DNA from: an uncultured Anaeroplasmataceae bacterium
GTDB lineage: Bacteria > Bacillota_I > Bacilli_A > Acholeplasmatales > Anaeroplasmataceae
Assembly (NCBI GenBank): GCA_947629825.1
Contig: CANRFF010000004.1
Location: 62,001-126,000 of the forward strand
Length of the DNA stretch: 64,000 nucleotides
Reading direction: 5' to 3'
Shown piece after piece: positions 34,395 to 64,000 of the stretch. A program made the translations under genes and the position numbers. Numbering within the stretch: the first letter of the stretch is position 1; each line of letters opens with the position of its first letter. The notes below the pieces were generated by a model. It was not told where the DNA came from and made no database searches. It worked only from the letters and a program-made list of their open reading frames with translations.

Positions 34395-34395
34395 T

Positions 34396-39871: not shown

Positions 39872-39881
39872 ACACATACTC

Positions 39882-47513: not shown

Positions 47514-47575
47514 TGACATCACCCTTTTCTCGTATTTTAGATAATTATATTATCAGACGCATTTTTTTACAAGGA

Positions 47576-47608: not shown

Positions 47609-47612
47609 CTAT

Positions 47613-47732
47613 GATTTTTTAGGTTCGCCTTTATACGGTAGCGAATCACCGAGATTTTTTAGGTTCGCCTTTATACGGTAGCGAATCACCGAGATTTTTT
47701 AGGTTCGCCTTTATACGGTAGCGAATCACCGA
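47613..47732. repeat. Three perfect tandem 40-bp repeats
   Basis: Units 47613-47652, 47653-47692 and 47693-47732 are identical, with no unique spacers. They form the body of the antitoxin RNA. Confidence 0.97.
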
Positions 47733-47757
47733 GATTTTATGTGGTATTTCTACCTAC
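47613..47757 (-). ncRNA. Type III antitoxin RNA (ToxI-like), three repeats
   Basis: Transcribed from the promoter at 47764-47792 through three 40-bp repeats to the terminator. Each repeat on the minus strand contains GGTGATTCGCTACC, where GGT and ACC can pair, while the enclosed TTCGC pairs with a downstream GCGAA. This is an H-type pseudoknot like that of ToxI. From memory, the ToxI repeat of Pectobacterium shares the GGTGATTTGCTACC core. An A-rich linker separates units and is the likely cleavage site. Confidence 0.85.
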
Positions 47758-48548: not shown

Positions 48549-49892
48549 TTAGTACTCTTGTATTAAAAAAGCAAGATAGTGCGGAATATAAAGAACGTTT
48601 TCTTTGAACGCAATATTGCCTTCTCTGATTTTAATGGCACTATCAACGTGATAGCGATCATAATTTTCAAGAATGGTCGTTAATGCTTTGGCTTTGCTGT
48701 TGCTGGCTTTTACTTCAATCAAGGTACATTTCCCTTTAAACCGCGTGACAAAATCAATTTCAAGACCGCTTTCTTTATAATAATAATACAGTTTTCTATT
48801 CATCTTAGAAAAAACATCTGCTATGATGTTTTCGTATATGGCACCTTTGTAAATCAATAAATTTCCATTTAAAATGTCTGCGTAAGTTCCATCTTCAAGC
48901 ATCGCAACAAATAAACCGCTATCTTGCATGTAAACCTTAAAGACGTCCTCTTTTTTATTTCCTTCCAGCGGTAGTTCTGTCGTTGACAGAGCATAGCAAC
49001 GACTGATGATGCCGGCATCTTCAAGCCATTCCAAAGCCCTTTTAAAATCTTCATTCTTCTTGTTTGCTTTAATTTTTGAAAATTGAAATTTTTTATTTTC
49101 TTTAGCCAATTGATTGGGTATAGATTTAAACACAGAAAGAATCGTCGCAAGTTCTTTCTTATCAACATACAAAGAATTGTCTTGTTTTAAGTGTCTGCCG
49201 AAATCATCTTGATAAGATTCTAAAATGTTACGTTGCAATTTCAAGACCCTATTCAGATCTCCCGTTTCAATAAATGCCTCAACCACTTCCGGCATGCCGC
49301 CAACACATATATATTTACGAAACAAATCTGACATTCTTGAATGTATTGCCGGTAAAACTTCCCTGCATTCTATAAAACAAGTTTTCAATTCGTCAATGGT
49401 TTTTGTTGAAATGCCGTTGGCCCACATAAACTCTTCAAAATCCATAGGCTTCATATAAATTACGTCTTCATAGCCGACAGGAATCGCATTATCTCCTTTT
49501 TTACTATATCCTTTGATACCAAGTAAAGATCCGGTACAAATAACATCAAATCTGCCGTCTTCATAAAAATACTTTAAAGACGATCTTGCATTGGGACAAT
49601 CCTGCACTTCATCAAAAATAAGAAGTGTTTTGTATGGAACGGCATTAACATCGGGAATATTTGCGGTTATTTGGCTGATTAAATCGTTAATAACAAAAGA
49701 TCGATCAAAAATAGAACGCAATTCATGATTTTTTCGAAAATCAAGATAAATAACATTTTCATAGTTTTTTTTAGCAAATTGTTTGACAATATAAGTCTTG
49801 CCAACCTGCCTTAATCCTTTAATCACTAATGGTTTTTTATTCTCGTTTTCTTTCCATTTTAAAAGTTCACTATACATCTTTCTTTTTAACAT
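48549..49892 (-). CDS. AAA ATPase with DUF4143 C-terminal domain
   Basis: 447 residues. Walker A GLRQVGKTYIVKQ at the N-terminus, Walker B LLIFDEVQDCP, sensor-like ICTGSLLG, and a C-terminal DUF4143 region with the PD-(D/E)XK-like pair EIDFVTRF ... LIEVKAS. The family is widespread, often mobile or phage-associated, and its exact function is unknown. It has its own promoter and lies between the partial and complete tRNA-Gln sequences. Composition is less extreme than the Ssp-like operon but more AT-rich than the housekeeping genes. Confidence 0.85.
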   Translation of the reverse strand: MLKRKMYSELLKWKENENKKPLVIKGLRQVGKTYIVKQFAKKNYENVIYLDFRKNHELRSIFDRSFVINDLISQITANIPDVNAVPYKTLLIFDEVQDCPNARSSLKYFYEDGRFDVICTGSLLGIKGYSKKGDNAIPVGYEDVIYMKPMDFEEFMWANGISTKTIDELKTCFIECREVLPAIHSRMSDLFRKYICVGGMPEVVEAFIETGDLNRVLKLQRNILESYQDDFGRHLKQDNSLYVDKKELATILSVFKSIPNQLAKENKKFQFSKIKANKKNEDFKRALEWLEDAGIISRCYALSTTELPLEGNKKEDVFKVYMQDSGLFVAMLEDGTYADILNGNLLIYKGAIYENIIADVFSKMNRKLYYYYKESGLEIDFVTRFKGKCTLIEVKASNSKAKALTTILENYDRYHVDSAIKIREGNIAFKENVLYIPHYLAFLIQEY

Positions 49893-50228: not shown

Positions 50229-51179
50229 TTACTTTTCCGTCAGTGACCGAAAATAATCCCGAACCAACAGATCGGCTTTTTTCACAAAGCCTTCCAGATC
50301 TTCCCACCGATCCAATCTTGCACCGGAAGCCTTGGCATGCCCTCCGCCGTGATATTCTTCTGCTAATTTGTTAATCATCGGCCCTCTCGATCTCAGTCGG
50401 ATCCGGATTTCATTGTGCGGATATTCCAAAAATATCGCCCATACCGGACACCCCTCAATCGTGGAAATCGTTGAAACCTGCGATGCCGCCTCTTCATCGG
50501 AAACATGAAATTGTTCGATTTCGTTTCTCTTTAAAGTAATATACGCAAATCCGTTTTCCGTTACTTTGAAATTGGAAAGAACATATCCTTTCAGTTTTAA
50601 ATTGTTCATCGTTTCAACCGAAAGTTGATTCTCAATCTCCTGTAAAGAAATCCCCTGTCCCAACAACTTGGCAGCACACAAAAAGGTTTCCGGACGAACG
50701 CTATCGAATTTGAATCTGCCCGTATCGGTATAAATGCCGACATAAAGCGCCGTTGCCGCCTCCAAATTCCATTTCCAACCGAACTCAAAAGCCATTTGAG
50801 TAATGATTTGCGCACAAGCCGGAGATTCTTCGTCGACATACTGCATATCTCCGTAAGAATCCACCACAATATGATGATCGATCTTGATGACATAAGCCCC
50901 TTGGGAATATCTTTGATCGGACAAGCGGTCTTTGGTCGCACAATCCAGACAAAGAATCAAAGCTCCCGGAAACAAATCGTCGGAAACCAACGAAGGCGCC
51001 CCGATAAATTTAACGCTGTCGCTGGATTCTCCGCTGATATAAATTTCTTTCTTCGGAAAATTTTCTTTTAAAAGTTCGTATAATCCGAACTGAGAACCAA
51101 TACAATCTCCGTCCGGACGAACATGTCCCAAAATAATAATTCTCGAATATTCCTTGATTTTTTCCAATATTTTTTTCAT
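50229..51179 (-). CDS. nrnA: NrnA-type DHH oligoribonuclease / pAp phosphatase
   Basis: 316 residues. DHH motifs GHVRPDGDCIGSQFGL, LDCATKDRL and KIDHHIVVDSYGD bind two metals; the DHHA1 motif is GGGHAKASGARL near the end. It degrades 2-5-base oligonucleotides and 3'-phosphoadenosine 5'-phosphate. 12 bp downstream of the ComEC-like gene, so it may finish the breakdown of nucleic acids as well as doing its housekeeping job. Confidence 0.9.
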   Translation of the reverse strand: MKKILEKIKEYSRIIILGHVRPDGDCIGSQFGLYELLKENFPKKEIYISGESSDSVKFIGAPSLVSDDLFPGALILCLDCATKDRLSDQRYSQGAYVIKIDHHIVVDSYGDMQYVDEESPACAQIITQMAFEFGWKWNLEAATALYVGIYTDTGRFKFDSVRPETFLCAAKLLGQGISLQEIENQLSVETMNNLKLKGYVLSNFKVTENGFAYITLKRNEIEQFHVSDEEAASQVSTISTIEGCPVWAIFLEYPHNEIRIRLRSRGPMINKLAEEYHGGGHAKASGARLDRWEDLEGFVKKADLLVRDYFRSLTEK

Positions 51180-51191
51180 CGCATATCTCCT

Positions 51192-52466
51192 CTATTCCGA
51201 GTTGGGCCAAACTCTTCTTTTTACTTTTGTAACGCCCTTGGTATTTTGATCGTAGAAATCCGTTTTTCCCGCACCGGAACTGATATATTTTCCGCTTTTG
51301 ACATAGATTTCCTCATTGAACCATTTCGTATCTTTCAAAATCGTCGTATCGTGGGTCGCCGAAACATGAATTTCGGTTCCGTCGCTTGAAATCGTGATAT
51401 TTCCGTTCATCGATTCCACCTTTTTCGAATTTTGATTATAAATGCTGGTCACATAAACTTTGTCGGTGTATTTGGCAATTCGGTTGACAAAATCCTGTGT
51501 CGGAAAAATAGATTGATAATTTGCCGTATATTCGATGGTTCCGGCACAAGTACAAATACAACAAATCTGCGGTTGAATGATTTTCAAAAGACAATCGTTG
51601 GAAGAAGTTTTCGATCCGTGATGTCCCGCTTTGAAAAGTTGACATTTCGGCAATGTTTTTTCCTTAGTGGAACCGTTGTAATAATCTGCCAGTTTTTCTT
51701 CCCCTTTCAGTTCCAAATCCCCCGTAAACAATGCATAAAACGGATTTTCTTTTTGATAGGAAAATAACGTACATACCGAATAATTGTTTTCGCTGTCGTC
51801 ATCGTTGAAATAGTAATAGTTATATAAAATACTCAAAGAAGCATTTTCGCTGATGGCAAATGTCCTTTTTGCCCCGTCGACTTCCAGAAAACATTGACTT
51901 GCGGTATAATGTTTCGTATGTTTGGAAACCAGATAATCCACTGCCGTTGCATATTCCTTACTGATTGTAGAAGTTGTGTTCTTTCGGGAAAAATCAATCA
52001 GAGTTCCGATTTCATATTGATAAAAAATGCCCGTCCTCGACGTTCCGCTTCCTTCACCGACAAACCCCGCAATATGATCCTGATGTGCATGCGTGGCAAT
52101 GACATATTCGAGAACTCCGTCCGTACAATACCGATCGATATAGTTACATAATGTTTTCGCACTGTCTTTTTTAGATCCCGCATCGATTAAAATATCCACA
52201 TCGTCCGCTTTGATATAGACGCTGTCGCCGACATTGTCGTTTCCGAGTTCCAGAAAATGAACTTGAAATTCGTCATATATCGTATCACTGGTACTGATGG
52301 AATCATCAGTATTGGTTAAAAAAGACTGCCCCGTTTTTCCGACAACTTGGTACTGCCAAAAAAAATAGATCCCCAGCCCAAGCAAACAAATCAAAAAAGC
52401 GCATAATATAATGATTCCTAATCGTTTTCTTTTGTGATTATTTTTGTTTTTCGACACATCATTCAC
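51192..52466 (-). CDS. Membrane-anchored ComEC-type metallo-beta-lactamase hydrolase
   Basis: 424 residues with an N-terminal basic segment and one membrane helix (~16-36). A metallo-beta-lactamase domain faces outside: FQVHFLELGNDNVGDS, DILIDAGS, and the metal motif THAHQDHIAGF, with later KAGHHGSKTSS. This is the layout of the hydrolase domain of ComEC, which is thought to degrade one strand during DNA uptake, but without the channel. A small beta-rich tail follows. Next to NrnA and upstream of nuclease and importer genes, so a secreted nuclease or phosphodiesterase role is plausible. Confidence 0.75.
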   Translation of the reverse strand: MNDVSKNKNNHKRKRLGIIILCAFLICLLGLGIYFFWQYQVVGKTGQSFLTNTDDSISTSDTIYDEFQVHFLELGNDNVGDSVYIKADDVDILIDAGSKKDSAKTLCNYIDRYCTDGVLEYVIATHAHQDHIAGFVGEGSGTSRTGIFYQYEIGTLIDFSRKNTTSTISKEYATAVDYLVSKHTKHYTASQCFLEVDGAKRTFAISENASLSILYNYYYFNDDDSENNYSVCTLFSYQKENPFYALFTGDLELKGEEKLADYYNGSTKEKTLPKCQLFKAGHHGSKTSSNDCLLKIIQPQICCICTCAGTIEYTANYQSIFPTQDFVNRIAKYTDKVYVTSIYNQNSKKVESMNGNITISSDGTEIHVSATHDTTILKDTKWFNEEIYVKSGKYISSGAGKTDFYDQNTKGVTKVKRRVWPNSE

Positions 52467-52556
52467 CTGATGTTATTGTATCATAGTTTTTCATCTTTTT
52501 AAATATTTTCTTGATTGTTGTCGGAAATTTGAAAAAAACAGATGAAACAATCAAAG

Positions 52557-52594
52557 AAAAAGCAGATTCGAGTTTTCTCAAAATCTGCTTTTTT
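52557..52594 (-). terminator. Intrinsic terminator after the OB-repeat lipoprotein gene
   Basis: AAAAGCAGATT / AATCTGCTTTT stem with T tail on the minus strand. Confidence 0.8.
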
Positions 52595-52608
52595 CTTGTT
52601 TTTCAAAT

Positions 52609-54330
52609 TTACATAATGTCTTCTGTCGCAATCGTCCAGATATGCGGATTTGGTCCGTCGTACCAGTACATAAATCCGTAAACCGTAACTTCCGTTCCGA
52701 CTTGCAAACCTTGAAGTGTTTCCAAAAGTTTACTGTAATCATTGTGGCTATCAAACGCAATGAATTTACCAAAATCGTCATATCGTTCCACACAACAGTT
52801 GATCGTTACTCCGTTTTCATCGACCAACGTGAAATACAAATCATCGGTCGGTTCATCGCCTTTATATCCAAATGCTTTGCTTTCAGCAACTTTCGCATTG
52901 GCGTCTGTCGTTTTGTATTCTGCGATTTTCATCGTTGCTATAAAAAGATAATTTTGATATCCTTCGTCCACATCAAATGCAGTAATCGAAGACTCTTCGT
53001 CGGCAACATTGATTAAAAGCGGTTGTTCCAATCCGACATAATCCTCTCCCAAAGTTGTCGCCGGTGTGATTGTCGCATCGGTAATCTCCATTTGTCCTTC
53101 GTAAACCGATTTGGTTCCCGTAATCGTATAAACTCCGTTTAAAACAGTTGCGGATATTTCGTTGAATTTTGCTTCCGTACATTCATAGTCATATACATAA
53201 TACCCGGAGGCGTCGGGATTGACAAAGTACAAATTGGCTTTTCCCTGATACCAAGTGGAAGTCATCAGAAGTATGGAAGTTACCGTTACTTCGCTTCCGA
53301 CAGGAACACTCATAAAGTTGGCATATTCTTTTGCCTGTTTGATCAGAGATTCTTCATCCGGTAAAATTTCAATCGATGTGATGTGCGCATTTGCGCCGTT
53401 ATACCAATACATATATCCACGTACACGAACGGTAGCACCCACAACGAAATCTGCGGATAATACGGTTTTATAAACGTCGGTATCCGTTCCCGTCAGATAA
53501 CTTTCGATACATGCGGACAATGTTTCGTTTTTGTCGTTTTTCAATTTCAAATACAAGTCGTTGTCCGGTTGATTTCCTTTAAAACCATACGCCTTGTTGG
53601 CAGAAACATGCTCATCGGCACCTGCAGCGGTATATTCAACCACTTCCAGCGTTGCGGTAAAGTAAGCATTCTGTACTTTCAATAAATCTTCCGTTTTCAA
53701 TGAGTTGGTTACATCTGTAACATGACGGCGCATTGCCGGAACATTTTCGACTACCGTCGTCAAAGCAGAATCAACATCGGAAATTTCTTGTTCTCCGGCA
53801 TATTCCGCTTTCACTCCGTAAAAGCGAACATAAGCACCTACCGTATATTTTTCGTTGTATTCTTTTTCAGTCATCGGCATTTCATAAACAAAATACCCTT
53901 CTCCGGCATTTCCGGTAGAAACATATAATGTCGCCTTATTGTTCCACCAACTTTGGCGATCCTGAATATATCCTTCAACGACTACATTATCTCCCGTGTC
54001 GGCAGTCATAAATTGCTGATAAGACATTCCGTCTGTCACGAGTTCCCACTTTGCGTAAAGTGTGGTATCTTTGGCAAAAGTCTCCGTTGAAAAATCAATC
54101 TGACTTCCGCTGTAACTTTCCGTTAAATACCAGCCGTCAAAATCATAAAATGCTTTGGTAGGATCCGCAGGTTTGGAAATTTTTCCGTCTTCGCGAGTTG
54201 TCATATCGGCCACTTCGCTTCCTCCTTTGGAATCGAAACTAACGGTATACAATGTGGCTTCTTTTTTCCCACAACCAATCACCGTGGTTATTGCCAAAAC
54301 ACCCAAAAACAATCCTAATATTTTTTTCAT
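52609..54330 (-). CDS. Lipoprotein with InlB-type repeat and OB-like domains
   Basis: 573 residues. The signal ends in the lipobox TTVIGCGK. Residues ~30-75 are one InlB B-repeat-like module (VSFDSKGGSEVADM ... YDFDGWYL). Then come three to four copies of an OB-like unit, recognised by the pattern 'G..V.V.GYI...S.W.N.A..YV' followed by 'YTVGAYVRFYGVKAEYAGEQEI'. The first and last copies are near 95-190 and 470-570. Related units occur in the lipoprotein and nuclease genes at 57784-61347. OB-like folds often bind nucleic acid or sugars. Likely surface-exposed. Ends in a terminator. Confidence 0.65.
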   Translation of the reverse strand: MKKILGLFLGVLAITTVIGCGKKEATLYTVSFDSKGGSEVADMTTREDGKISKPADPTKAFYDFDGWYLTESYSGSQIDFSTETFAKDTTLYAKWELVTDGMSYQQFMTADTGDNVVVEGYIQDRQSWWNNKATLYVSTGNAGEGYFVYEMPMTEKEYNEKYTVGAYVRFYGVKAEYAGEQEISDVDSALTTVVENVPAMRRHVTDVTNSLKTEDLLKVQNAYFTATLEVVEYTAAGADEHVSANKAYGFKGNQPDNDLYLKLKNDKNETLSACIESYLTGTDTDVYKTVLSADFVVGATVRVRGYMYWYNGANAHITSIEILPDEESLIKQAKEYANFMSVPVGSEVTVTSILLMTSTWYQGKANLYFVNPDASGYYVYDYECTEAKFNEISATVLNGVYTITGTKSVYEGQMEITDATITPATTLGEDYVGLEQPLLINVADEESSITAFDVDEGYQNYLFIATMKIAEYKTTDANAKVAESKAFGYKGDEPTDDLYFTLVDENGVTINCCVERYDDFGKFIAFDSHNDYSKLLETLQGLQVGTEVTVYGFMYWYDGPNPHIWTIATEDIM

Positions 54331-54399
54331 TTTTTAGTCCTTTCTTCTTTTTGGATTTTTACAATCCTATTATACCAATGAATCACCGATTCTTCAAGT

Positions 54400-55806
54400 T
54401 TATTTTGCAACGCCGCAGTTGGTCAAGGCTCTTTTGAATAATTCTTCGACGTTAATTTCGTTTTTCTTGCTGAGAACGGCTCGATCCAACAATTTTCCCA
54501 CTTCGTCCCGAACAACCGCAGAACCATTGAACGCCGGTGTGATAAACGTTCTGTCTTTAAAATCCATGACATTTTGAATTGCGTCTTTCTGAACGCTGTA
54601 AATTTCATCGGAATTCAAAAAACTTCGGAACGCTTCCGATTGAATCGCCTTGGTGGTTACGGGAGAATACCCTTCGGTCTTCGCAAAAGCCACTTGTGTA
54701 TCTTCGGTCAACAGATACTGCATAAAAATCCACGAAGCCAAAACTTCCTGCGGATCTTCTTTATTGAACACACAAAGGCTCGGCCCCTGTGAAATAACTT
54801 TCGGGTGATCGACATCAACTTGAGGGATCGTTGTTACCAATACATCGAAATTTTTCTTTCCTTTGGCTCCCAAAGGAGAATTCGGCCCCATCCAAGTCGA
54901 ACCGGCCGAAGAATCGATTCCGAAAATACATTCCCTATCGTTGAATTTATCTCCGGGATAAAATCCCGTATTTTGCCATGTGACAAACAAGTTCTGTTTA
55001 TATAATTCATTGAGTTTACGAATCATCTTTTTGTTGTCTTCGTTCGCAAACAGAATTTTCCCGTCTTCCGTCGTATAATCATATCCGTTTTGATAAGCCA
55101 GTTCGATAAAGAAGTTGTCGCTGGATTTGTAAATCAACGGAATTATTCCCGGGTCCTGCTGTTGCGCATAGGCACAGATTTCCCAAATCTGATCCCACGA
55201 GAAAATATTGTTTTTCGGAAGAGTGAATCCGTTTTTTTCCAGCCAAGTCCGATTGGCATACAGACATTCCGTCGAACGCATAAAAGGTAACGTATATAAT
55301 TTTTTGACCCCTTCGGATTCAATATAACCTTCAACGAGATATTCGGAAACGAATTCTTCTTCTTTCGGTGAATCAAATAACAGTTTGTTTCCACCCAAAC
55401 CGTAATCGGTATTCTGAATCAAATCATTCAGTTCCACGACCAAAGAAGGATTCTCCAGATAGGTGGCCACATGGTCGGGATAAGCAATCGCCACATTCGG
55501 CGTTGTGTTGGTTCCGATATTTTGAAGAACGGCTTCATATAATTCCGGATAAGAAGTATAGTGGCTGATTTCTACGGTAATATTCGGATAAAGGGCTTCG
55601 AAATCGGCAATGGCATTTTCGAAAATTCTTCTTTGCGTGGGATTGCTGTCGTTTTTCGCCCAAAATGTCAGATTGTGATGAACGGACATATCAAACGTAT
55701 CCGGAAGAACAAAATTCGGAATATAAATTCTACCATGACAAGCACACAACACTCCGAGGTTTGCGATTATCATCAAAACCGAAATTATTTTTTTGATCAT
55801 TTTCAT
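54400..55806 (-). CDS. ABC importer solute-binding lipoprotein (family 1), second system
   Basis: 468 residues. Lipobox in LGVLCACHG. The family-1 extracellular solute-binding fold is seen in LTFWAKNDSNPTQRR, VAIAYPDHVATYLEN, LYTLPFMRSTECLYANR and the late ITPAFNGSAVVRDEVG. Overlaps the downstream-acting permease gene (55806) by one base. Paralogous to the binding protein at 61362-62738, but the two are clearly diverged, so the systems may prefer different ligands. The usual ligands are sugars or glycerol phosphodiesters; nucleosides or oligonucleotides are possible from context. Confidence 0.85.
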   Translation of the reverse strand: MKMIKKIISVLMIIANLGVLCACHGRIYIPNFVLPDTFDMSVHHNLTFWAKNDSNPTQRRIFENAIADFEALYPNITVEISHYTSYPELYEAVLQNIGTNTTPNVAIAYPDHVATYLENPSLVVELNDLIQNTDYGLGGNKLLFDSPKEEEFVSEYLVEGYIESEGVKKLYTLPFMRSTECLYANRTWLEKNGFTLPKNNIFSWDQIWEICAYAQQQDPGIIPLIYKSSDNFFIELAYQNGYDYTTEDGKILFANEDNKKMIRKLNELYKQNLFVTWQNTGFYPGDKFNDRECIFGIDSSAGSTWMGPNSPLGAKGKKNFDVLVTTIPQVDVDHPKVISQGPSLCVFNKEDPQEVLASWIFMQYLLTEDTQVAFAKTEGYSPVTTKAIQSEAFRSFLNSDEIYSVQKDAIQNVMDFKDRTFITPAFNGSAVVRDEVGKLLDRAVLSKKNEINVEELFKRALTNCGVAK

Positions 55807-56684
55807 TACCCCTTTACTCCCGTGCGGGCCACACCGCTCATAATTTGTTTTCTGAAAAATACAAACAACAACAACAGCGGAATTGATACGATGACCACTG
55901 CCGCCATCATTGCCGGAATATTTTCCCGACCGAATCCGGAAGTTCTCAATTCTTCAATTCCGTTGCTGACCAAAAAATAATTCGCTTTGGTCGTTACCAA
56001 TCTCGGCCATACATAAGAATTCCAGCATTCGATAAATTTTAAAATCACAATCGAAACGATCGTCGGTTTCGAAAGAGGAACCAATACTTTCCAAAGATAT
56101 TTCATATCGTTTGTTCCGTCCACTTTCGCCGCATAATACGTCTGATCCGGTACTTGCATAAAATTCTGTCTCAACAGATAGATATAAAACACCGAGATGA
56201 CCGACGGTAAAATCAATCCGACAAATGTGTTTCGCAAGTTCATATGAACCACGGTCGCATAATTCGTAATCGTAAATAATTCCATAGGAATCATCATCGT
56301 TGCCAAAAAAACCGTAAATACGATTTCTTTTCCTTTGAAATTCAATCTCGCAAACGCAAACGCCGCAAAAATACATACCACAACCATAATGGCGGTTGTG
56401 ATTGTCGAAAAAATCAACGTGTTGATCATATAATTTCCGAGTTGTACACTCGTCCATGCAATTTGATAGTTTTCCATGGTAGCGTGTGTCGGCACAAAGG
56501 TCGGTACGGTCTGTGAGGTATAATCCGCAAACGTTTTGACAGAAGATAAAATCATCCAATAAAACGGAAACAGAACCGTAATGGCCGCAACGGTCAGAAA
56601 AAGATAAATGAGAATCATTCCGATGCGATTGAGAACGGCAAATTGTTTTTCTTCTTTTTGAATCTTCGTCGATGTCAATTCCAC
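55806..56684 (-). CDS. Carbohydrate-type ABC permease (MalG-like), second system
   Basis: 292 residues, six membrane helices. The EAA loop is YYAAKVDGTNDMKYLWKVLVPLSKP. Typical MalG-type ending GVARTGVKG. It forms the membrane channel with the MalF-like partner encoded at 56697-57596. No ATPase gene is seen near; such systems often share an MsmX-like ATPase encoded elsewhere. Confidence 0.9.
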   Translation of the reverse strand: MELTSTKIQKEEKQFAVLNRIGMILIYLFLTVAAITVLFPFYWMILSSVKTFADYTSQTVPTFVPTHATMENYQIAWTSVQLGNYMINTLIFSTITTAIMVVVCIFAAFAFARLNFKGKEIVFTVFLATMMIPMELFTITNYATVVHMNLRNTFVGLILPSVISVFYIYLLRQNFMQVPDQTYYAAKVDGTNDMKYLWKVLVPLSKPTIVSIVILKFIECWNSYVWPRLVTTKANYFLVSNGIEELRTSGFGRENIPAMMAAVVIVSIPLLLLFVFFRKQIMSGVARTGVKG

Positions 56685-56696
56685 TTCTTTTTCCTC

Positions 56697-57596
56697 CTAG
56701 TAATAAACTTTCTTTTTGCTGACCAGCAAATTGACCAATGTAATGGCCATAATAATCGCAAACAAAACAATGGCTGCGGCGGCCGCTCTGGACGGATATC
56801 CTCCGGTTGCCGCATACAAATAGTCATAAACACAGCCGACAATCGTATTCATTCCGTAAAAGTTCAAATCTTTTCCGTAGATTCCCACTGCATTATTGTA
56901 CTCTTTGAATGCTCCGATAAATCCCGTAATCACCAGATACGACGTAATCGGCGATATCATCGGAATCGTGATCTTGCGGAATCGTTTGAGACGGGAAGCC
57001 CCGTCTACTTTCGCCGCATCGTAAAGTTCTTTTTTTACCGACTGCAACGCTCCTGCGAAAACCAAAATCTTAAATGGCATGACATTCCAAATAATATAGG
57101 TACACAAGACAAACATTTTACTCCAATATGCCCCGTTGAGCCAATCCACGGCCGAAATGCCGAACCAAGACAAAATCGTATTCATTACCCCGATTGTATC
57201 CGGAGTCAGATCGAACATTACCATAAAAACCAAGCCGACCGCAAGGGTGTTGGTAACATACGGTAAAAAGAAAATCGTTTGAAAAATTTTTTTGAGCGGA
57301 CGAATCGCATTCAGTGCCGCCGCAATCAACAATGCCAAAACGGTCGAAACCGGAACGGTAATCACAACCAACAAAAAAGTGTTTTTCAAAGCGTCGACAA
57401 AACGATAATCGGAAAAAACATATTGATAGTTTTGAAATCCGACGCCGGTGTAACTTTGGGTGGTGAACTTGAAATTTTCCTCGAAAGAATAAATAAAAAC
57501 ATCGATCAGAGGATAAATCATAAATGCGCCCAAAAAGAACAATGCCGGTGCCAAATACAGCCACGCTTTCCAATGATTTTTCGCTTCCATACTCAA
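56697..57596 (-). CDS. Carbohydrate-type ABC permease (MalF-like), second system
   Basis: 299 residues, six membrane helices. EAA loop YDAAKVDGASRLKRFRKITIPMISP. First gene of the second importer operon (MalF, MalG, binding protein, and perhaps the OB-repeat lipoprotein at 52609). A good promoter lies upstream. Confidence 0.9.
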   Translation of the reverse strand: MSMEAKNHWKAWLYLAPALFFLGAFMIYPLIDVFIYSFEENFKFTTQSYTGVGFQNYQYVFSDYRFVDALKNTFLLVVITVPVSTVLALLIAAALNAIRPLKKIFQTIFFLPYVTNTLAVGLVFMVMFDLTPDTIGVMNTILSWFGISAVDWLNGAYWSKMFVLCTYIIWNVMPFKILVFAGALQSVKKELYDAAKVDGASRLKRFRKITIPMISPITSYLVITGFIGAFKEYNNAVGIYGKDLNFYGMNTIVGCVYDYLYAATGGYPSRAAAAAIVLFAIIMAITLVNLLVSKKKVYY

Positions 57597-57689
57597 CCCT
57601 CTTTTCGTTGTTTGACTTTTTCGCCTGTTTCTTCGATCATTTTCGTTTTTAAAATTCCGTATTTTGAAAAATGGAAATCATCTGTTCTT

Positions 57690-57718
57690 ATTATAACAAT
57701 TTTGTTTCTTTTTTTCAA
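57690..57718 (-). promoter_or_regulatory. Promoter of the second importer operon
   Basis: Minus strand TTGAAA (57713-57718), 17-bp spacer, TATAAT (57690-57695). Confidence 0.75.
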
Positions 57719-57728
57719 TTTCAAGAAC

Positions 57729-57763
57729 AAAAAAGAGATAAAATCCGTATGGATCTTATCCCT
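57729..57763 (-). terminator. Intrinsic terminator after the large lipoprotein gene
   Basis: GGGATAAGATCC pairs imperfectly with GGATTTTATCTC, with TTTTTTG following on the minus strand. Confidence 0.65.
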
Positions 57764-57783
57764 TTTCCATTTGTCATATCAAA

Positions 57784-60072
57784 TTACGAATTTACCGTAA
57801 TCGCAAGCGGAGTAATTTGCGCTTTGTTGTACCAATTGACAAAACCCGTAATCGTTACGTTTTGTCCTTCGACCGGAATGTCAAATCCAGTAGCCGACTT
57901 GAAATATACAACAACGTCAACGGTTCCGACCGTCAAGAACATGCCGGAACTTTTATTTGCTGCCCAAGTTCCTTTTACCACTCCGGTAATCGTAATGTAA
58001 TTTGCCTGATCTTTGGCTTCCAGTGCTGTTCCGCCGGAAATTTTTGCGGTAATGTCTGTCGGAGTCGGTGCCGTTACTTTCTTTCCTTTGACAACTTGGT
58101 CTTCCAAAGAAGTGATATTTGCTTCATGAAGTCCGCTATAAATTGCTTTTTGGAAATTGGAAATGGTGGTTTCATATCCGACAACAAATGTCTTTTCCCA
58201 ATCGGCCTGTGTAATGGCATTGTTCTTCTTATAAACATAGACGCTTCCGGATTCACTCCATACAATCGCAAAGCCGGTGCCGACAACGCTGGTTACACCC
58301 TTGAAACTTCCTGCCAGTTGCGCATTGTTTGCGGCAGCAAGATAATCATCAAAAGTGATCACAAAAGATTCTTTGGTCGATAACGTCCAAGTAACTGTTT
58401 CTGTCAATTCTTTATACGTAATCGTTGCGGTTAATGTTGCCGAATGAAGATCGGCTTCTACTTTGTTGACTTTGTAATAGTATTGTTGAGTCGATGCTGT
58501 TTTCGCAAGCGAAATATAATCGTTTTCAGGTAATGTATAAGTTACCGATGCTGCCGATTTCGACGGAGAAACAACACCTACCAAAGTATGAATGGTTCCT
58601 TTAGTGCTGGCATCCAGACTGGTTACCAATGTTTGGCCGGAAACGGCTTTCTTCAATTCGTTCATAACATCGGCATCTGTTTTCGTTGTGATTGTCCAAG
58701 TAACCGTTTTGGTTTCCGTTGTTCCGGAATGACTGATGGTTGCGGTCAATTTTGCCGTAGCAACGTTTGCATAGTCTACAACGACATTCAATTTATGATC
58801 GTCGGATAAAGTGATCGCACCGGTACCGCCGTTATTGTTTTCGTCGGAAAGTGCATAAGTAATCGTACACTCATTTAATGTTGTCGGTAATTCTTGCGGT
58901 GCTGTCCAACTGTCGTAAACATAGTTCACATTGTTGCTTACCGTACCGAATGTCATCGCTTTGAGTTCGGATTCTGTTCCGGCAACCATATCTTCCGGAG
59001 TTACTACTGTGGAATCCACTTTAATGGAATCAGTTGGTTTTGTAAGCAGGTAAAGTTGTGCTGTATTATAAACGCCAACCAGTCCGGATACGGTAATGGT
59101 ATAACCGATCTTGAGCGTCTGACTCAAATCTTCCAATTCAGGAACAAATCCGTTACTCTTATCCATATAAACTTTATAATCGTTTCCGCCGACTTTGATT
59201 CCCAAAGACGCATTCGATGCGGTTGCCGAGAATGTCGGAATGGACGTTACTTTTCCGGTTACTTTCGCAAGAGTGCTTTGCGGAGCAATTGCTTCGACAC
59301 TTCCGGCAGCATTACTGCTCCATAATGTCGTCAGATCCTGATAATCGAAATCCGTTTTTTCCGGAGCGTCTGTAATCGCATAATACGTTCCGCCCGCAGC
59401 GATTTCAACCCATTTGTTATATGGAGAAACCGTTCCGTCAATTGCCATTTTCTTACCTACGGCAAAATATTCGTCATAATCTGCTTGACTGCCGACTTTG
59501 ACTCTGTATCCGTAATATCCGCCATCTTCATCTTGTAAGAATACGCTGGTGTTTCCGTAAGATGCGGAATATCCCGTTGCGAAGACAACCCAACCTTGAA
59601 CAACGACTTTTGTTCCGCTTGCCGCTGCAGCGAATGTTGCATGATTAACCGGATTCATTGCGTCGATTTCGGCTTGTGTCTTTCTCATAGAGAGATCTTT
59701 TTTATCGATTTTAAATGACCACGTTTTTGTCTTTTTCAAAACCGTTGCGGTCAGATCGAAAGTTTGTTCTTCCGCTGTTTGAGTGATTGCGATTGTGGTA
59801 GTTGTATTTTCTTCATCCACCTTGACTTCCGCATTTGTATTGTTTGTCTTATATTCGACAACATAATCCTTATCTTTTACGCTGATACTGTAAGGAACAC
59901 TCAAATCACTTGATAGAGAAGTTTCTGTTTTTTCATCTAACAATAAAGATAATCTCGTAATTGCTTCGTCGCCGAGTTTTCCATTGTTTCCGCAAGAAGC
60001 AAGACCTAGTCCGGCTGCGGCAACCAAAAGCGCCGAGCCAAATAGGGAAATTCCTTTTCTAAATAATTTCAT
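57784..60072 (-). CDS. Large lipoprotein with OB-like domains flanking Ig-like repeats
   Basis: 762 residues. Lipobox GLASCGNN. An OB-like unit at ~135-245 (GTKVVVQGWVVFATG ... YFAVGKKMAIDGTVSPYNKW), a second near 270-330, and a final pair at ~590-760 (GTGFAIVWSESGSVYVYKK; NYITITGVVKGTWAANKSSG). Between these are repeated 'KTVTWTITTK' Ig-like strands. It follows the nuclease lipoprotein gene by 21 bp, so the two are co-expressed and may act together on the cell surface. Binding role inferred. Confidence 0.65.
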   Translation of the reverse strand: MKLFRKGISLFGSALLVAAAGLGLASCGNNGKLGDEAITRLSLLLDEKTETSLSSDLSVPYSISVKDKDYVVEYKTNNTNAEVKVDEENTTTTIAITQTAEEQTFDLTATVLKKTKTWSFKIDKKDLSMRKTQAEIDAMNPVNHATFAAAASGTKVVVQGWVVFATGYSASYGNTSVFLQDEDGGYYGYRVKVGSQADYDEYFAVGKKMAIDGTVSPYNKWVEIAAGGTYYAITDAPEKTDFDYQDLTTLWSSNAAGSVEAIAPQSTLAKVTGKVTSIPTFSATASNASLGIKVGGNDYKVYMDKSNGFVPELEDLSQTLKIGYTITVSGLVGVYNTAQLYLLTKPTDSIKVDSTVVTPEDMVAGTESELKAMTFGTVSNNVNYVYDSWTAPQELPTTLNECTITYALSDENNNGGTGAITLSDDHKLNVVVDYANVATAKLTATISHSGTTETKTVTWTITTKTDADVMNELKKAVSGQTLVTSLDASTKGTIHTLVGVVSPSKSAASVTYTLPENDYISLAKTASTQQYYYKVNKVEADLHSATLTATITYKELTETVTWTLSTKESFVITFDDYLAAANNAQLAGSFKGVTSVVGTGFAIVWSESGSVYVYKKNNAITQADWEKTFVVGYETTISNFQKAIYSGLHEANITSLEDQVVKGKKVTAPTPTDITAKISGGTALEAKDQANYITITGVVKGTWAANKSSGMFLTVGTVDVVVYFKSATGFDIPVEGQNVTITGFVNWYNKAQITPLAITVNS

Positions 60073-60093
60073 TTCCTCTTTCCTTTCTGATTT

Positions 60094-61347
60094 TTAAGCG
60101 AAGACAACGTCTCCGAAAGATACAATTTGTAACTGATATACATTCTGATATTCCGTAACAATTCCGGAAACACTTGAAATTAGTTTGTTTCTGAAGTCAT
60201 TTTCCGTAATCGGACGGGCATTATCATATAATGCGGAAGTTCTCAACTGAACTTTTTGTCCGTTGACGGTACAAGTAACCGTCATTTGTTTGGAGATGGA
60301 ATCTCCGACAATTTCACTGCCGGAATAGATGTCCGTCACCGTTAAATCTTTCAATGTGACAAATGTCCGCATTTTTACTGTTTTATTATTTAATTCCGTC
60401 GCAGTAATTTCTTTGGCTTCTACTTGTTGTCCTGTCGCAAGAACACGAACGTATTGATCCCACTTCGAATCGGTCGAACCTTTTTCGAATCGGTCGTAGA
60501 TACAACCGGAAATCTGATACAGTCCGTTATATTCCTGAACAAAACCATGAACTCTCAACTTGTTGCCCTTTTTAAATGCGGCCAATAAGTTCTGATCATA
60601 TCCCAAATAAACGAGCATTCCGTAAGTTTCTCCGTCAACGTCATTCTGAACATAAGCATAATTGTTGTCGATTCTGCTGACAAAGGCTTCGAAATTCACT
60701 CTTCTTCCATAATAATCCGCCGCTTGTTCGCAAACTTCTTTGATCGTCATCAACTGACCGGTTCCGTAATCGTAATTCGGGTCTTGTTCCGAAGACCAAA
60801 CATACGCTTTTCGTTTCATCGCTGCGGTTGCCGCACTGTTAAAATCGTCCTGATAAAGTGCGGTGCTGTCTACTTTGGATTTGGAATACCCTTCTTCCAC
60901 AAGTTCGAGATTCAAATTCCGGAAATCATCGGCTTCCTGCAGTTGATACCATACAAAAGCAAGATATCGTGTTCCCGTACTGTCCAACGTCGCCGCTTTG
61001 CCGTCTTGAGCCTGCAACACCAATGTGTGTGCCTTTTTCAAGATGTTTGAAGTGAAAGTCGACGCTGCTTTTCCCCATGGTTCGATGGCACCTGTCGATT
61101 CCGGTGTGTCAACACATGAGAAACGAATTTTGATTTCCGTTCCCGCACTTTTAAACCAAGCGGTATCTCCGTCGACGGTGGAATACAATTCCACTTTGCC
61201 GATGCCGTCTTTAATGAATTCTTTACCTTCATAAGAAGCACTCAATTTCAATGAGTTTGTATAGTTTTTGCCGCCTCCGCAGGAGAGCAACACCAAAGTG
61301 AAAGCCAATAAGAATACTGCCGCAAAAATTTTTTTTGCAGTTTTCAT
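60094..61347 (-). CDS. Secreted staphylococcal-nuclease-like lipoprotein
   Basis: 417 residues with a lipobox (VLLSCGGG). Residues ~45-175 are a thermonuclease domain: STVDGDTAWF, IRFSCVDTPES (catalytic Arg and acidic residues), EPWGKAAS, GTRYLAFVWYQ (second Arg) and NLELVEEGYSKS. The core catalytic positions look intact. Residues ~200-417 hold two OB-like units (GRRVNFEAFVSRIDNN...). It would cut DNA or RNA outside the cell while tethered to the membrane. Located between binding-protein and lipoprotein genes of ABC importers, like the nuclease-transporter clusters of mollicutes. Confidence 0.85.
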   Translation of the reverse strand: MKTAKKIFAAVFLLAFTLVLLSCGGGKNYTNSLKLSASYEGKEFIKDGIGKVELYSTVDGDTAWFKSAGTEIKIRFSCVDTPESTGAIEPWGKAASTFTSNILKKAHTLVLQAQDGKAATLDSTGTRYLAFVWYQLQEADDFRNLNLELVEEGYSKSKVDSTALYQDDFNSAATAAMKRKAYVWSSEQDPNYDYGTGQLMTIKEVCEQAADYYGRRVNFEAFVSRIDNNYAYVQNDVDGETYGMLVYLGYDQNLLAAFKKGNKLRVHGFVQEYNGLYQISGCIYDRFEKGSTDSKWDQYVRVLATGQQVEAKEITATELNNKTVKMRTFVTLKDLTVTDIYSGSEIVGDSISKQMTVTCTVNGQKVQLRTSALYDNARPITENDFRNKLISSVSGIVTEYQNVYQLQIVSFGDVVFA

Positions 61348-61361
61348 ATCAAATCCTATGA

Positions 61362-62738
61362 TTATGCAATACAGTTGGCAATGGCATCTTTGAAAGCCGA
61401 ATCAATGGTGCTATCCAAATTAGATGCTGTCTTTACATTTTTGATGACTTTCTGAATCAAAGCACCTACTTCGTCACGAGCGGTTGAAGAACCGTTGAAT
61501 GCCGGTGAAACGAAGAAGTGATCCGAAAGTGTACTGGAAGTCTTTGCGGAAAGTGCCGTAACATTCTGACTTTCTACTGTGGCAAACGGTTCGTCTGCTT
61601 CTGCCAAGAATTCCTTATAAGTCGGATTCTGATAAACGGATTCCAAAACCGGATTGTATCCGGAAGCCATAGAGAACGAAGCCTGGAATTCGGTTGTCAA
61701 CAAGTAATCTCTCATAAATTTCCAAGTCATCAACATCTTTTCTTCGCTGGTCTGAGTCAACATACAAAGAGAAGGACCCTGAGAAATACACTTCAGACTT
61801 GCTTCTGCCGTAGAGCCTTCTTTTACGAAGGTAGGAATCGGAGCAATTCCGACTTCAAATGCCTTGCTGTCCGGTTTCTGATGGTTTGCACCACCGGTAG
61901 AACCGATTGACATATAACTTGTCTGAGCCACAAACAAACTGGAAGTATAAGTTCCGTTTTCCGTCTGTGTCATAACATATCCTTTATTAAACCAGTCGGC
62001 AATCATCTTCACTGTATCACGGTTTGCCTGATTGTCAAACAAATAATGATCTTTGTTGGTTGGTTTGTTATCCGAAGTAACTGCCGTATAAGCTGCACCT
62101 TTTTGTTCTGCCGTTGTAATAAAGAAGTTGGCTTCGGAATCCAGTCCGAGCGGATAAGTTCCCGGGAACATTGCTTTGATGGTTGCACAAACTTCTTCCA
62201 TTTCATCCCATGTTGTCGGCACTGTTAATCCCCAGTCGTCGAAGAACGTCTTGTTATAGTACAAAACTTCCGTTGATTTGGAGAATGGCAGTGTATACAT
62301 CACGTTCGGATCCCCGAAAGAACTACCTTCCGCATAATAACCCGGAACGAAATCATTGACTTGTGCCTCCGTCAATCCGATTTCCGGATCGGTACTCTTG
62401 ATGTACTGATTCAAATCGACAACAGCATTTGCTTTATTGTATGCTGCCACGTGGTCCGGATAACAATAAACCAAACTTGGATTATTTCCGGCTGCAATAT
62501 AACTGATTGTCTGGTTCCGCACGTCATCATAACTTCCGATTTGTACGGATTCCACTTTCCAGCCTTCGTCTTTGTACTTTTCTTCAAACTCAGCGATGGC
62601 CGGATTTAATACTGCTTGCAAAGAATCTCCCATCGTGTGCCAAAACGTAATGGTATGGCTGGTATCTTTTCCGCCGCACGATGCCAGAGAAACTCCTGCT
62701 GCTGCTACTAATAAAGCACCAAATAATTTCTTTTTCAT
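61362..62738 (-). CDS. ABC importer solute-binding lipoprotein (family 1), first system
   Basis: About 458 residues from ATG 62738, with AAGGAGA six bases upstream; a longer frame from 62780 lacks an SD. Lipobox GVSLASCGG. Family-1 binding fold: ITFWHTMGDSL, LVYCYPDHVAAYNK, MYTLPFSKSTEVLYYNK, SPAFNGSSTARDEVG. Paralogue of the protein encoded at 54400-55806. Lies between MalG-like permease and nuclease genes, suggesting a common transcript. Confidence 0.9.
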   Translation of the reverse strand: MKKKLFGALLVAAAGVSLASCGGKDTSHTITFWHTMGDSLQAVLNPAIAEFEEKYKDEGWKVESVQIGSYDDVRNQTISYIAAGNNPSLVYCYPDHVAAYNKANAVVDLNQYIKSTDPEIGLTEAQVNDFVPGYYAEGSSFGDPNVMYTLPFSKSTEVLYYNKTFFDDWGLTVPTTWDEMEEVCATIKAMFPGTYPLGLDSEANFFITTAEQKGAAYTAVTSDNKPTNKDHYLFDNQANRDTVKMIADWFNKGYVMTQTENGTYTSSLFVAQTSYMSIGSTGGANHQKPDSKAFEVGIAPIPTFVKEGSTAEASLKCISQGPSLCMLTQTSEEKMLMTWKFMRDYLLTTEFQASFSMASGYNPVLESVYQNPTYKEFLAEADEPFATVESQNVTALSAKTSSTLSDHFFVSPAFNGSSTARDEVGALIQKVIKNVKTASNLDSTIDSAFKDAIANCIA

Positions 62739-62763
62739 TTTTTCTCCTTTTGTTTTATATTTT

Positions 62764-63654
62764 TTAACCTTTTGTTCCACTTCTCGAAACGCTTCTCATA
62801 ATATGTTTCCTAAAGAATACAAAGACAATGAACAGCGGTAATGACACAATGAATACGCCAGCCATACGCATCGGATAGTGTGTCATATTCGTTTGGGCGT
62901 CGGTAAATGAAACCATCAACCAGTTGGCTACGAGTCTCATCGGACGACCGCCGCTGACATTGACCAATCTAGGCCAAATATAAGAATTCCATGCAGCCAT
63001 CAACTTCAAAATGGTAATCGAAGTAATGGTCGGCATAGAAAGTGGAACCATAACTTTCCAAAGATATTTCATATCGCTTGTACCGTCTACTTTCGCAGCA
63101 TAGTACAGTTCGTTTGGAATTTGTTTGAAATTGTTTCTCAACAGATAAATATAGAATACACTGACCAAGAACGGTAAAATAAGCGCAATAAACGAATTTT
63201 GCCATCCCAGTCTCATCGTTGTAACCAAGTTGGTAATCTGGAATAATTCTCCCGGAAGCATCATCGTTGCCAACAATAACGCAAACAACGTGTCTCGTCC
63301 TTTGAAGTGCAGTCTCGCAAACGCAAACGCCGCGAAAATCGTCACAATGATTCCCAAAGCCGTCGAAGTAATTCCGACAATGATCGTATTGATCAGATAA
63401 TCCGAGAAGTTCGCATTATTCAACGCATTGTAATAGTTTTCGAAATGAATCTCGGTCGGAAACCAAGTCTGAGGATTCTGATTGATATAATCCGATTGAC
63501 TTTTCAGCGAAGTATTGATCATCCAGTAAAACGGGAACAACGTCGTAATTGCCACCACAATCAAAAAGGCATATACGAAAATTTTAATGATCACTTTGGT
63601 AACTTTTTGTTTTTTCAACGCCTGTTCGGCATTCAATGTTACTGTATTTTCCAT
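62764..63654 (-). CDS. Carbohydrate-type ABC permease (MalG-like), first system
   Basis: 296 residues, six membrane helices. EAA loop YYAAKVDGTSDMKYLWKVMVPLSMP; ends SVSRSGTKG. Very similar to the MalG-like protein at 55806-56684. Ends 25 bp before the binding-protein gene and starts 14 bp after the MalF-like gene. Confidence 0.92.
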   Translation of the reverse strand: MENTVTLNAEQALKKQKVTKVIIKIFVYAFLIVVAITTLFPFYWMINTSLKSQSDYINQNPQTWFPTEIHFENYYNALNNANFSDYLINTIIVGITSTALGIIVTIFAAFAFARLHFKGRDTLFALLLATMMLPGELFQITNLVTTMRLGWQNSFIALILPFLVSVFYIYLLRNNFKQIPNELYYAAKVDGTSDMKYLWKVMVPLSMPTITSITILKLMAAWNSYIWPRLVNVSGGRPMRLVANWLMVSFTDAQTNMTHYPMRMAGVFIVSLPLFIVFVFFRKHIMRSVSRSGTKG

Positions 63655-63668
63655 TCTGCTGTCCCTCC

Positions 63669-64000
63669 TTAATAATGAACTCTTTTCTTACCGACAAAGA
63701 AGTTGATTGCGGTAAAGAACATAATAATCACCAACAATATTAAGGCTGCCGCAGAAGCCACGCCGTATTGTCCCGCATATTTATCCCCGTCGATATAACG
63801 GTAGATAAAGCCGACAATCGTAATCATATAGTTATCAAACCCCATACTTTCGGAACCCGGGGCACTGAATAACCCGACAACCGAAGTATATTCTTTGAAC
63901 GCTCCGATAAATCCCGTCACAAACAGATAGAAAATCATCGGAGAAATCAACGGAACCGTAATTTTCGTCAATACTCTGCGTCTTGGCGTACCATCGATTT
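63669..64000 (-). CDS. Carbohydrate-type ABC permease (MalF-like), C-terminal part (cut by window edge)
   Basis: The last ~110 codons of a MalF-type permease. The frame is open to the window edge and includes the EAA-loop end DGTPRRRVLTKITVPLISP, then three membrane helices and the ending GKKRVHY. First gene seen of the first importer operon. An in-frame TTG at 63971 is internal, not a start. Confidence 0.88.
   Translation of the reverse strand, partial: IDGTPRRRVLTKITVPLISPMIFYLFVTGFIGAFKEYTSVVGLFSAPGSESMGFDNYMITIVGFIYRYIDGDKYAGQYGVASAAALILLVIIMFFTAINFFVGKKRVHY

What the first reader, a model, noticed from the sequence alone, without database searches (positions are those of the whole stretch)
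50229..64000. Candidate extracellular nucleic-acid scavenging locus
Seen: NrnA, a membrane-anchored ComEC-type hydrolase without the channel, a thermonuclease lipoprotein with intact catalytic residues, two big OB-repeat lipoproteins, and two family-1 ABC importers with all but one gene complete. Known: mollicute-type bacteria couple surface nucleases to ABC importers to gain nucleotides. Inferred: a surface system that binds, cuts and imports nucleic-acid pieces, finished by NrnA inside. Sugars or glycerol phosphodiesters remain alternative substrates.
Basis: partly seen in the sequence, partly recalled or inferred. Interest (0 to 1): 0.7.

Follow-up and report, generated by a model that had tools for sequence, protein, structure and literature searches.

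The report
Nucleic-acid scavenging and import operon
This stretch carries a bacterial surface system that probably catches stray DNA and RNA, cuts it into very short pieces, pumps those pieces in and finishes them inside; the same gene set recurs in mycoplasma relatives, gut Clostridia and spirochaetes, and a trimmed version may be the missing nucleotide route of plant-infecting phytoplasmas.

Summary
The run is one locus: ATPase (just outside the window), MalF1, MalG1, SBP1, thermonuclease lipoprotein, OB lipoprotein, a second MalF2-MalG2-SBP2, another OB lipoprotein, membrane ComEC-like hydrolase, NrnA. The nucleic-acid reading is strongly supported by context. Searching 84,980 genomes with the binding protein alone, 79 of 79 testable loci have a thermonuclease lipoprotein directly downstream (median gap 1 nt), in mollicute relatives, Clostridia and Spirochaetales; NrnA lies within 10 kb in 26 of 41 full-length loci. 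The closest solved structure to both binding proteins is a Thermus dinucleotide-binding protein; the phosphate-holding Tyr/Ser quartet is invariant and the glycerol-3-phosphate Trp clamp absent. NrnA degrades 2-5-mers. I favour import of short oligonucleotides over sugars or nucleosides. The host genome lacks PurM, PyrB and the Bmp nucleoside receptor. All 14 phytoplasmas examined keep ATPase-permeases-SBP-NrnA without the nuclease, including P. mali's published 'maltose' importer. The general kind is known (mycoplasma MslA-SNase-ABC operon; Hujiaoplasma locus). New are the breadth, the extra parts and the specific mechanism. Binding and transport are untested.

The parts
63669..64000 (-). MalF1 permease, 3' part (gene continues to C4:126619, outside the window); preceded by the only ATPase of the locus (C4:126621-127682)
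62764..63654 (-). MalG1 permease (CUT1)
   Evidence: Pfam BPD_transp_1 8e-15; NCBIfam UgpE-like 6e-30, below cut-off
61362..62780 (-). SBP1, lipoprotein binding protein; nearest solved = Thermus dinucleotide-binding protein
   Evidence: SBP_bac_8 2e-37; PDB 7c0x 4e-18 single, 6.5e-44 profile; AF2 pLDDT 86; fold match 7c0l
60094..61347 (-). Thermonuclease (SNase) lipoprotein with C-terminal OB-like/DUF5689 part; catalytic residues intact
   Evidence: SNase 8.7e-13, DUF5689 5e-11; only SNase found in the genome
57784..60072 (-). 762-aa lipoprotein with OB-like and Ig-like modules, presumed nucleic-acid binder
   Evidence: tRNA_anti OB 3.7e-4, below cut-off; model and fold search; conserved position after SNase
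57597..57783 (-). 187-nt gap with a promoter-like site (57718-57690, 11 of 12), possible second transcription start
   Evidence: consensus match only
56697..57596 (-). MalF2 permease (45% identical to MalF1)
55806..56684 (-). MalG2 permease (51% identical to MalG1)
54400..55806 (-). SBP2, second binding lipoprotein (about 32-33% identical to SBP1, same site signature)
   Evidence: SBP_bac_8 3e-29; PDB 7c0x 1.5e-10 versus UgpB 5.5e-4
52609..54330 (-). 573-aa lipoprotein: Listeria-Bacteroides repeat + two repeats of a pair of OB-like modules
   Evidence: PF09479 1e-17; internal repeats E 7e-13 and 1e-20; related proteins next to MBL in genus mates
51192..52466 (-). Membrane-anchored MBL hydrolase, ComEC C-terminal type, predicted outside
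   Evidence: Lactamase_B 5.7e-10, ComEC_Rec2 1.5e-12 over residues 67-336, below cut-off, PDB ComEC 9vc6 1e-5
50229..51179 (-). NrnA nano-oligonuclease / pAp phosphatase, cytoplasmic
   Evidence: DHH 2e-18, DHHA1 1e-11; PDB 5j21 2.7e-69

Best explanation
A surface-to-cytoplasm system for feeding on nucleic acids. OB-type lipoproteins hold extracellular DNA/RNA at the membrane (inferred). The SNase lipoprotein, perhaps helped by the outward-facing MBL hydrolase, cuts it to very short pieces (catalytic residues shown intact; activity inferred). SBP1 and SBP2 bind di- or short oligonucleotides through a phosphate-binding site, and the two permease pairs with one shared ATPase import them (ligand inferred from homology to a dinucleotide-binding protein and from context). 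NrnA cleaves the imported 2-5-mers, and possibly 3',5'-bisphosphates, to 5'-mononucleotides for salvage (activity known for NrnA; its place here inferred). Likelihood: nucleic-acid scavenging in general about 0.88; short oligonucleotides as the imported form about 0.6.
For: SBP-only search of 84,980 genomes: 79/79 testable loci have SNase directly downstream, median gap 1 nt. NrnA in 26/41 full-length loci, SurE in 17/41; a few loci have PyNP, DeoD, DeoB, DeoC and cytidine deaminase. Gene order AsnS-ATP-F-G-SBP-SNase-OB-(MBL)-NrnA across families of the order and, in its core, in other orders. Nearest solved SBP to both SBP1 and SBP2 is the Thermus UpG-bound dinucleotide-binding protein. Phosphate quartet Y84/S169/S294/Y375 and Q334 in 33/33; Trp clamp and Glu of UgpB absent (roles from PMC12718374). 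Profile match to mycoplasma MslA, E 7.6e-11; MslA is reported to bind DNA (PMC4045577). No PurM, PyrB or Bmp receptor in the own genome; 10 of 11 genus genomes lack PurM and PyrB. M. bovis NrnA-type pair needed for growth with host cells and rescued by nucleosides/NMPs (PMC7373297). Hujiaoplasma locus with NrnA + ABC + extracellular RNase: many genes induced by DNA/RNA (PMC10470597).
Against: No assay on any protein of this locus. SBP1 is only about 22% identical to the Thermus protein, whose UpG came along during expression; Mtb UgpB (glycerophosphocholine) is tied by fold (Z 38.2 vs 38.8) and E. coli UgpB nearly tied by profile (1.4e-42 vs 6.5e-44). One of eight probed Thermus residues aligns ambiguously and Y246 is His here. 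Genera of the family that keep PurM/PyrB also have the locus, so it is not simply an auxotrophy gene set. Published mycoplasma models assume that nucleotides, not oligonucleotides, cross the membrane. MBL is absent from most loci outside the mollicute relatives (5/80 overall).
Confidence: 0.7

Rival explanations
1. Same scavenging system, but what is imported are mononucleotides or nucleosides made outside by SNase and MBL; NrnA merely cleans up internal nano-RNA.
For: Published model for the mycoplasma operon: the exonuclease releases individual nucleotides for the ABC transporter (PMC4045577, PMC3585158). NrnA is also a housekeeping enzyme.
Against: No extracellular nucleotidase in the locus. 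The SBP has a phosphodiester-type site related to a dinucleotide binder. NrnA stays next to the importer even where SNase is lost (phytoplasmas). No Bmp-type nucleoside receptor, although mycoplasma P48 shows that route exists elsewhere (PMC12892991).
Confidence: 0.2
2. Glycerophosphodiester or glycerol-phosphate importer (Ugp type) that happens to sit beside nucleases.
For: UgpB and GPC-binding proteins are close structural relatives; the phosphate quartet is shared with them (PMC12718374).
Against: Trp clamp (A217, F220 here) and Glu (P108 here) of UgpB missing in the family. No UgpQ-like phosphodiesterase seen in the locus, whereas it sits beside E. coli ugpC. The 79/79 adjacency to SNase would be unexplained.
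Confidence: 0.05
3. Ordinary oligosaccharide importer (MalEFG/Msm) next to unrelated genes.
For: CUT1 family membership; usual automatic annotation; the phytoplasma orthologue is annotated as a maltose importer (PMC2459194).
Against: No glycoside hydrolase among the locus proteins; phosphate-binding quartet, not conserved in glucose binders (PMC12718374); conserved nuclease/NrnA/SurE context.
Confidence: 0.02
4. Defence or virulence locus: the surface nuclease protects against phage DNA or extracellular traps, the importer is incidental.
For: Mycoplasma SNases degrade NETs (PMC9740415); the MBL weakly matches defence MBLs.
Against: Found in many gut and environmental MAGs of Clostridia and Spirochaetales; importer and nuclease adjacent in 79 of 79 testable loci; nucleoside-catabolism neighbours.
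Confidence: 0.03

Closest known systems
Mycoplasma MslA/P80/P81 (SBP)-SNase-MsmK-permease operon (M. agalactiae MAG_5030-5070, M. bovis MBOVPG45_0307-0311)
   Same: SBP lipoprotein, SNase lipoprotein, ATPase and two permeases together; SBPs homologous by profile; same proposed role (PMC3585158, PMC4045577); NrnA pair about 3 kb downstream in one mycoplasma (L093)
   Different: Order permuted (SBP-SNase-ATP-F-G there; ATP-F-G-SBP-SNase here); here with OB lipoproteins, MBL, NrnA in the run and a second importer; SBP1 scores far below the NCBIfam P68 cut-off (51 vs 200 bits)
Hujiaoplasma nucleasis zrk29 and Xianfuyuplasma coldseepsis zrk13 nucleic-acid degradation loci
   Same: Nuclease(s) and ABC transporters in one locus; with NrnA in zrk29, with thermonuclease in zrk13; genes induced by nucleic acids (PMC10470597, PMC8397711)
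[quoted passage not shown] Chandravanshi et al. 2021, cited in PMC12718374)
   Same: Nearest solved structure to SBP1 and SBP2; phosphate quartet and Gln274 kept
   Different: About 22% identity; genomic context of the Thermus gene not examined; Y246 is His/Tyr/Trp here, N81 is Asp
E. coli UgpBAEC glycerol-3-phosphate importer
   Same: CUT1 components and shared phosphate-binding residues
   Different: Trp clamp and Glu89 missing here; no ugpQ seen; nuclease context instead
Phytoplasma MalKFGE 'maltose' importer
   Same: Same position after asnS, same ATP-F-G-SBP order, SBP profile E 3.9e-64 to this family, NrnA next gene
   Different: No SNase or OB lipoproteins; two of the four phosphate-site residues changed in most phytoplasmas

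Membership tests
Mycoplasma-type SNase-ABC nucleic-acid uptake operon | SBP lipoprotein adjacent to SNase lipoprotein, with CUT1 permeases and ATPase in one run | tested here: met
Mycoplasma-type SNase-ABC nucleic-acid uptake operon | SBP homologous to MslA/P80 | tested here: met
   hhalign probability 97.1, E 7.6e-11; NCBIfam lipo_P68 6e-14, partial
Mycoplasma-type SNase-ABC nucleic-acid uptake operon | SBP binds polynucleotide; nuclease active | not testable with these tools
   needs assays
NCBIfam NF045826 P68 surface lipoprotein (equivalog) | score over curated cut-off (200 bits) | tested here: not met
   51.4 bits; so a relative, not a member
Dinucleotide-binding CUT1 SBP (Thermus type) | Ligand-probed residues kept | tested here: inconclusive
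   Y56, S127, Q274 identical; F79>Y, T240>S conservative; N81>D, Y246>H changed; Y224 alignment ambiguous
Dinucleotide-binding CUT1 SBP (Thermus type) | Dinucleotide bound | not testable with these tools
   needs binding assay or structure
UgpB glycerol-3-phosphate SBP | Trp188/Trp191 clamp and Glu88 (marine UgpB numbering) | tested here: not met
   A217, F220, P108 at these positions (roles in PMC12718374)
SNase / thermonuclease | Catalytic D21, R35, D40, E43, R87 (S. aureus) | tested here: met
   D61, R75, D80, E83, R127
NrnA | DHH and DHHA1 domains with DHH and GGGH motifs | tested here: met
   NCBIfam equivalog score 252 bits is below its 350 cut-off
NrnA | Degrades 2-5-mers and pAp | not testable with these tools
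   needs assay
ComEC competence channel | Transmembrane Competence domain (PF03772) | tested here: not met
   absent from 51192-52466; the genome's full ComEC is at C1:160875
OB-fold nucleic-acid-binding lipoproteins | Significant OB-fold match | tested here: inconclusive
   Pfam OB 3.7e-4, below cut-off; model pLDDT 75, tandem-OB DNA binders among top hits but also Ig/cadherin; 573-aa protein not modelled

The most novel reading that the evidence does not exclude
A widespread, previously unrecognised class of ABC importers for intact di- and short oligonucleotides, paired with a surface SNase (gut and environmental lineages) or with NrnA alone (phytoplasmas), so that NrnA acts as the intracellular half of a nutrient pathway. 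The phytoplasma 'maltose' importer would be its reduced form and the missing nucleic-acid precursor route of these uncultured plant parasites.
Probability: 0.45. Interest if true: 0.8.

Novelty: new variant of a known kind. Interest (0 to 1): 0.63.

Why it matters
How Mollicutes and their relatives obtain nucleotides is an old gap: for 'Ca. P. mali' no nucleotide or precursor transporter was found, and its only sugar importer, called a maltose importer, has no matching maltose-degrading enzymes (PMC2459194); nucleotide acquisition by phytoplasmas was still called unknown in 2021 (PMC7861385). This locus gives a concrete answer to try with one assay: does the binding protein hold dinucleotides? 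If so, many CUT1 importers annotated as sugar transporters in gut Clostridia, Spirochaetales, acholeplasmas and phytoplasmas need a new name, and direct uptake of oligonucleotides becomes a recognised bacterial nutrition route.

Tried and rejected
A 36-row SBP alignment was too diverse for the collection scan and was replaced by an 11-row one. Rfam search for a purine or other riboswitch upstream of the locus: only a T-box before asnS and the tRNA. The full text of the MslA DNA-binding paper (PMC3754236) is not held; I rely on PMC4045577's description. A profile of mycoplasma MslA against PDB gave no hit. Phytoplasma SBPs against PDB do not discriminate: UgpB 1.2e-10, dinucleotide binder 5.7e-10, maltodextrin binder 7e-10. 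The model of the 762-aa lipoprotein is too uncertain for domain counting (pTM 0.47). Considered and rejected: a competence (DNA transformation) locus, since the MBL lacks the channel and ComEC is elsewhere; a strict auxotrophy gene set, since PurM/PyrB-positive genera also carry the locus. My first gene caller missed SBP and SNase in GC-rich contigs because of antisense frames (69/80); the count was repeated with all frames.
Full report
What is there. The window is G000:C4:62001-126000, from a 1.42-Mb, 12-contig genome, 96% complete. All genes of the finding lie on the minus strand. Read 5' to 3' the locus starts outside the window, after asnS: ATPase (C4:126621-127682), MalF1 (to window 63669), MalG1, SBP1, SNase lipoprotein, 762-aa lipoprotein, then after a 187-nt gap MalF2, MalG2, SBP2, 573-aa lipoprotein, MBL hydrolase, NrnA, tRNA-Gln. 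Only one ATPase is present, so both permease pairs presumably share it (inference). A contig of a genus mate (24,771 bases, G130:C25) matches by length a record titled Anaeroplasma bactoclasticum, so the genome is probably an Anaeroplasma (inference).

Conservation inside the order. The SNase lipoprotein was found in 76 of 160 genomes of the order at E 1e-3. Forty of these regions were read: the order AsnS-ATP-MalF-MalG-SBP-SNase-OB lipoprotein, often followed by a second lipoprotein, MBL and one or two NrnA genes, recurs across families f1, f2, f4 and f5, with variations. In five genus mates the lipoprotein after SNase, the OB573-type lipoprotein, MBL and NrnA are directly contiguous, so the second MalF2-MalG2-SBP2 in the window looks like an insertion; in one genus mate a module of the same type (F-G-SBP-OB) lies elsewhere (L208). 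SBP2 and SBP1 are 32-33% identical, the permeases 45-51%.

Conservation beyond. A search of 84,980 genomes with SBP1 relatives only found 485 loci, of which the best 80 were fetched: Anaeroplasmataceae and other Acholeplasmatales, but mostly MAGs labelled Clostridia, Lachnospiraceae, Oscillospiraceae and Spirochaetales. Of 79 with more than 700 nt downstream, 79 have a SNase after the SBP on the same strand, median gap 1 nt. The query did not contain the nuclease, so this is an unbiased test of the pairing, although the loci are not phylogenetically independent, they are the 80 most similar of 485, and MAG labels may be wrong. In the 41 loci of at least 18 kb, NrnA occurs in 26 and SurE in 17; an RDD membrane protein occurs in 37, usually just before the ATPase; in a few loci a nucleoside phosphorylase-DeoB-DeoC-cytidine deaminase set lies beside it (DeoD and DeoC named from their sequences). 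By chance a 20-kb stretch would hold NrnA in a few per cent of genomes (rough estimate). Other orders of the class show the same operon core, and mycoplasmas show the published permuted version.

Phytoplasmas. Almost all genomes of genus g18 have an SBP of this family. In all 14 examined the run is AsnS-ATP-F-G-SBP-NrnA, without SNase; a fifteenth, L108, is the same. One of the 14, L196, comes from a 601,943-base contig, the published length of the 'Ca. P. mali' AT chromosome (PMC2459194). That paper states that MalKFGE is the only sugar importer, that no maltose-degrading enzyme was found and that no nucleotide or precursor transporter was found. Phytoplasma SBPs match this family with E 3.9e-64 and keep S294-, Q334- and R435-equivalents, but Y84 is Trp and Y375 is replaced in most; their ligand may therefore differ.

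What the binding proteins bind. The closest solved structures to SBP1, by single sequence (4e-18), by profile (6.5e-44) and by fold (rank 1, Foldseek 4e-22; VIA Z 38.8), are those of the Thermus thermophilus dinucleotide-binding protein crystallised with UpG. For SBP2 it is again the best (1.5e-10 versus 5.5e-4 for UgpB). Fold alone does not discriminate: Mtb UgpB is tied (Z 38.2). Residues do more. In CUT1 proteins two Tyr and two Ser that hold phosphate are strictly conserved in UgpB, GPC- and UpG-binding proteins but not in glucose binders, and a two-Trp clamp marks UgpB (PMC12718374). SBP1 relatives have the quartet (Y84, S169, S294, Y375) and the Thermus Gln274 equivalent (Q334) in 33 of 33 sequences, and lack the Trp clamp and the UgpB Glu. 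So a phosphate-bearing ligand larger than glycerol phosphate is indicated; together with the neighbours, a short oligonucleotide is the best guess. The mycoplasma DNA-binding SBP MslA is homologous by profile (E 7.6e-11).

Enzymes. The SNase has all catalytic residues and is the only SNase found in the genome. SNases leave 3'-phosphorylated mono- to oligonucleotides (established knowledge). NrnA removes 2-5-mers and is also a pAp phosphatase; a NrnA-type pair of M. bovis is needed for growth with host cells and replaced by added nucleosides or NMPs (PMC7373297). That a 2-5-mer exonuclease so often lies beside the importer is what makes oligonucleotide import attractive. The MBL protein has one predicted N-terminal membrane segment with positive residues before it, so its metal site probably faces outward (inference); it is common in this genus and its relatives but rare elsewhere (5 of 80), so it is accessory.

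Physiology. The genome has no PurM and no PyrB, nor have 9 of the 10 other genomes of its genus, while one (G132) has both; no Bmp-type nucleoside receptor either. But sister genera with PurM and PyrB carry the locus too, so it also serves organisms that can make nucleotides, perhaps as a phosphorus, nitrogen or carbon source.

Judgement. Nucleic-acid scavenging: very likely. Import as short oligonucleotides: more likely than not, untested. The kind of system is known from mycoplasmas (PMC3585158, PMC4045577) and from cultured Izemoplasma-like bacteria (PMC8397711, PMC10470597); what is added is the strict pairing across phyla, the component list, the link to a dinucleotide-binding protein and the phytoplasma reinterpretation.

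Noticed in passing
window 33864-45920 (-): Phosphorothioation/BREX-like defence island: PbeC (DndD-like ATPase), PbeA helicase, SspA/DndA cysteine desulfurase, SspC-like, BrxP-like PAPS-reductase/4Fe-4S protein.
   Followed up: partly
window 46941-47738 (-): ToxN/AbiQ type III toxin gene with a perfect 3.2 x 40-bp tandem repeat directly upstream, the place expected for a ToxI RNA antitoxin.
   Followed up: partly
L189-L202, L108: Phytoplasma 'maltose' importer is collinear with this locus and followed by NrnA in 14/14 genomes examined plus L108, lacking SNase.
   Followed up: yes
L133:1618-8071, L117:3677-8118, L187:10499-13184: In Clostridia and spirochaete MAGs the operon neighbours SurE, NrnA pairs, PyNP, DeoB, DeoC, DeoD, cytidine deaminase, and an RDD membrane protein of unknown role occurs in 37 of 41 full-length loci, usually before the ATPase.
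   Followed up: partly
L002:7382-7584 (-): T-box leader upstream of asnS, the conserved upstream neighbour of the locus in the order.
   Followed up: no
L003:4591-19622 (G000:C4:146591-161622): Region with a second, different ABC importer set (two permeases, ATPase, 659-aa binding lipoprotein), a NagB-like gene and repeat-type lipoproteins resembling a polysaccharide utilisation cluster (read by eye).
   Followed up: no
window 48549-49892 (-) and L002:7779-9254: An AAA_14/DUF4143 ATPase lies just downstream of the locus, and an ORF that looks similar by eye lies just upstream of asnS.
   Followed up: no
L054:8136-10545: Tandem duplicated SNase lipoproteins in one relative.
   Followed up: no
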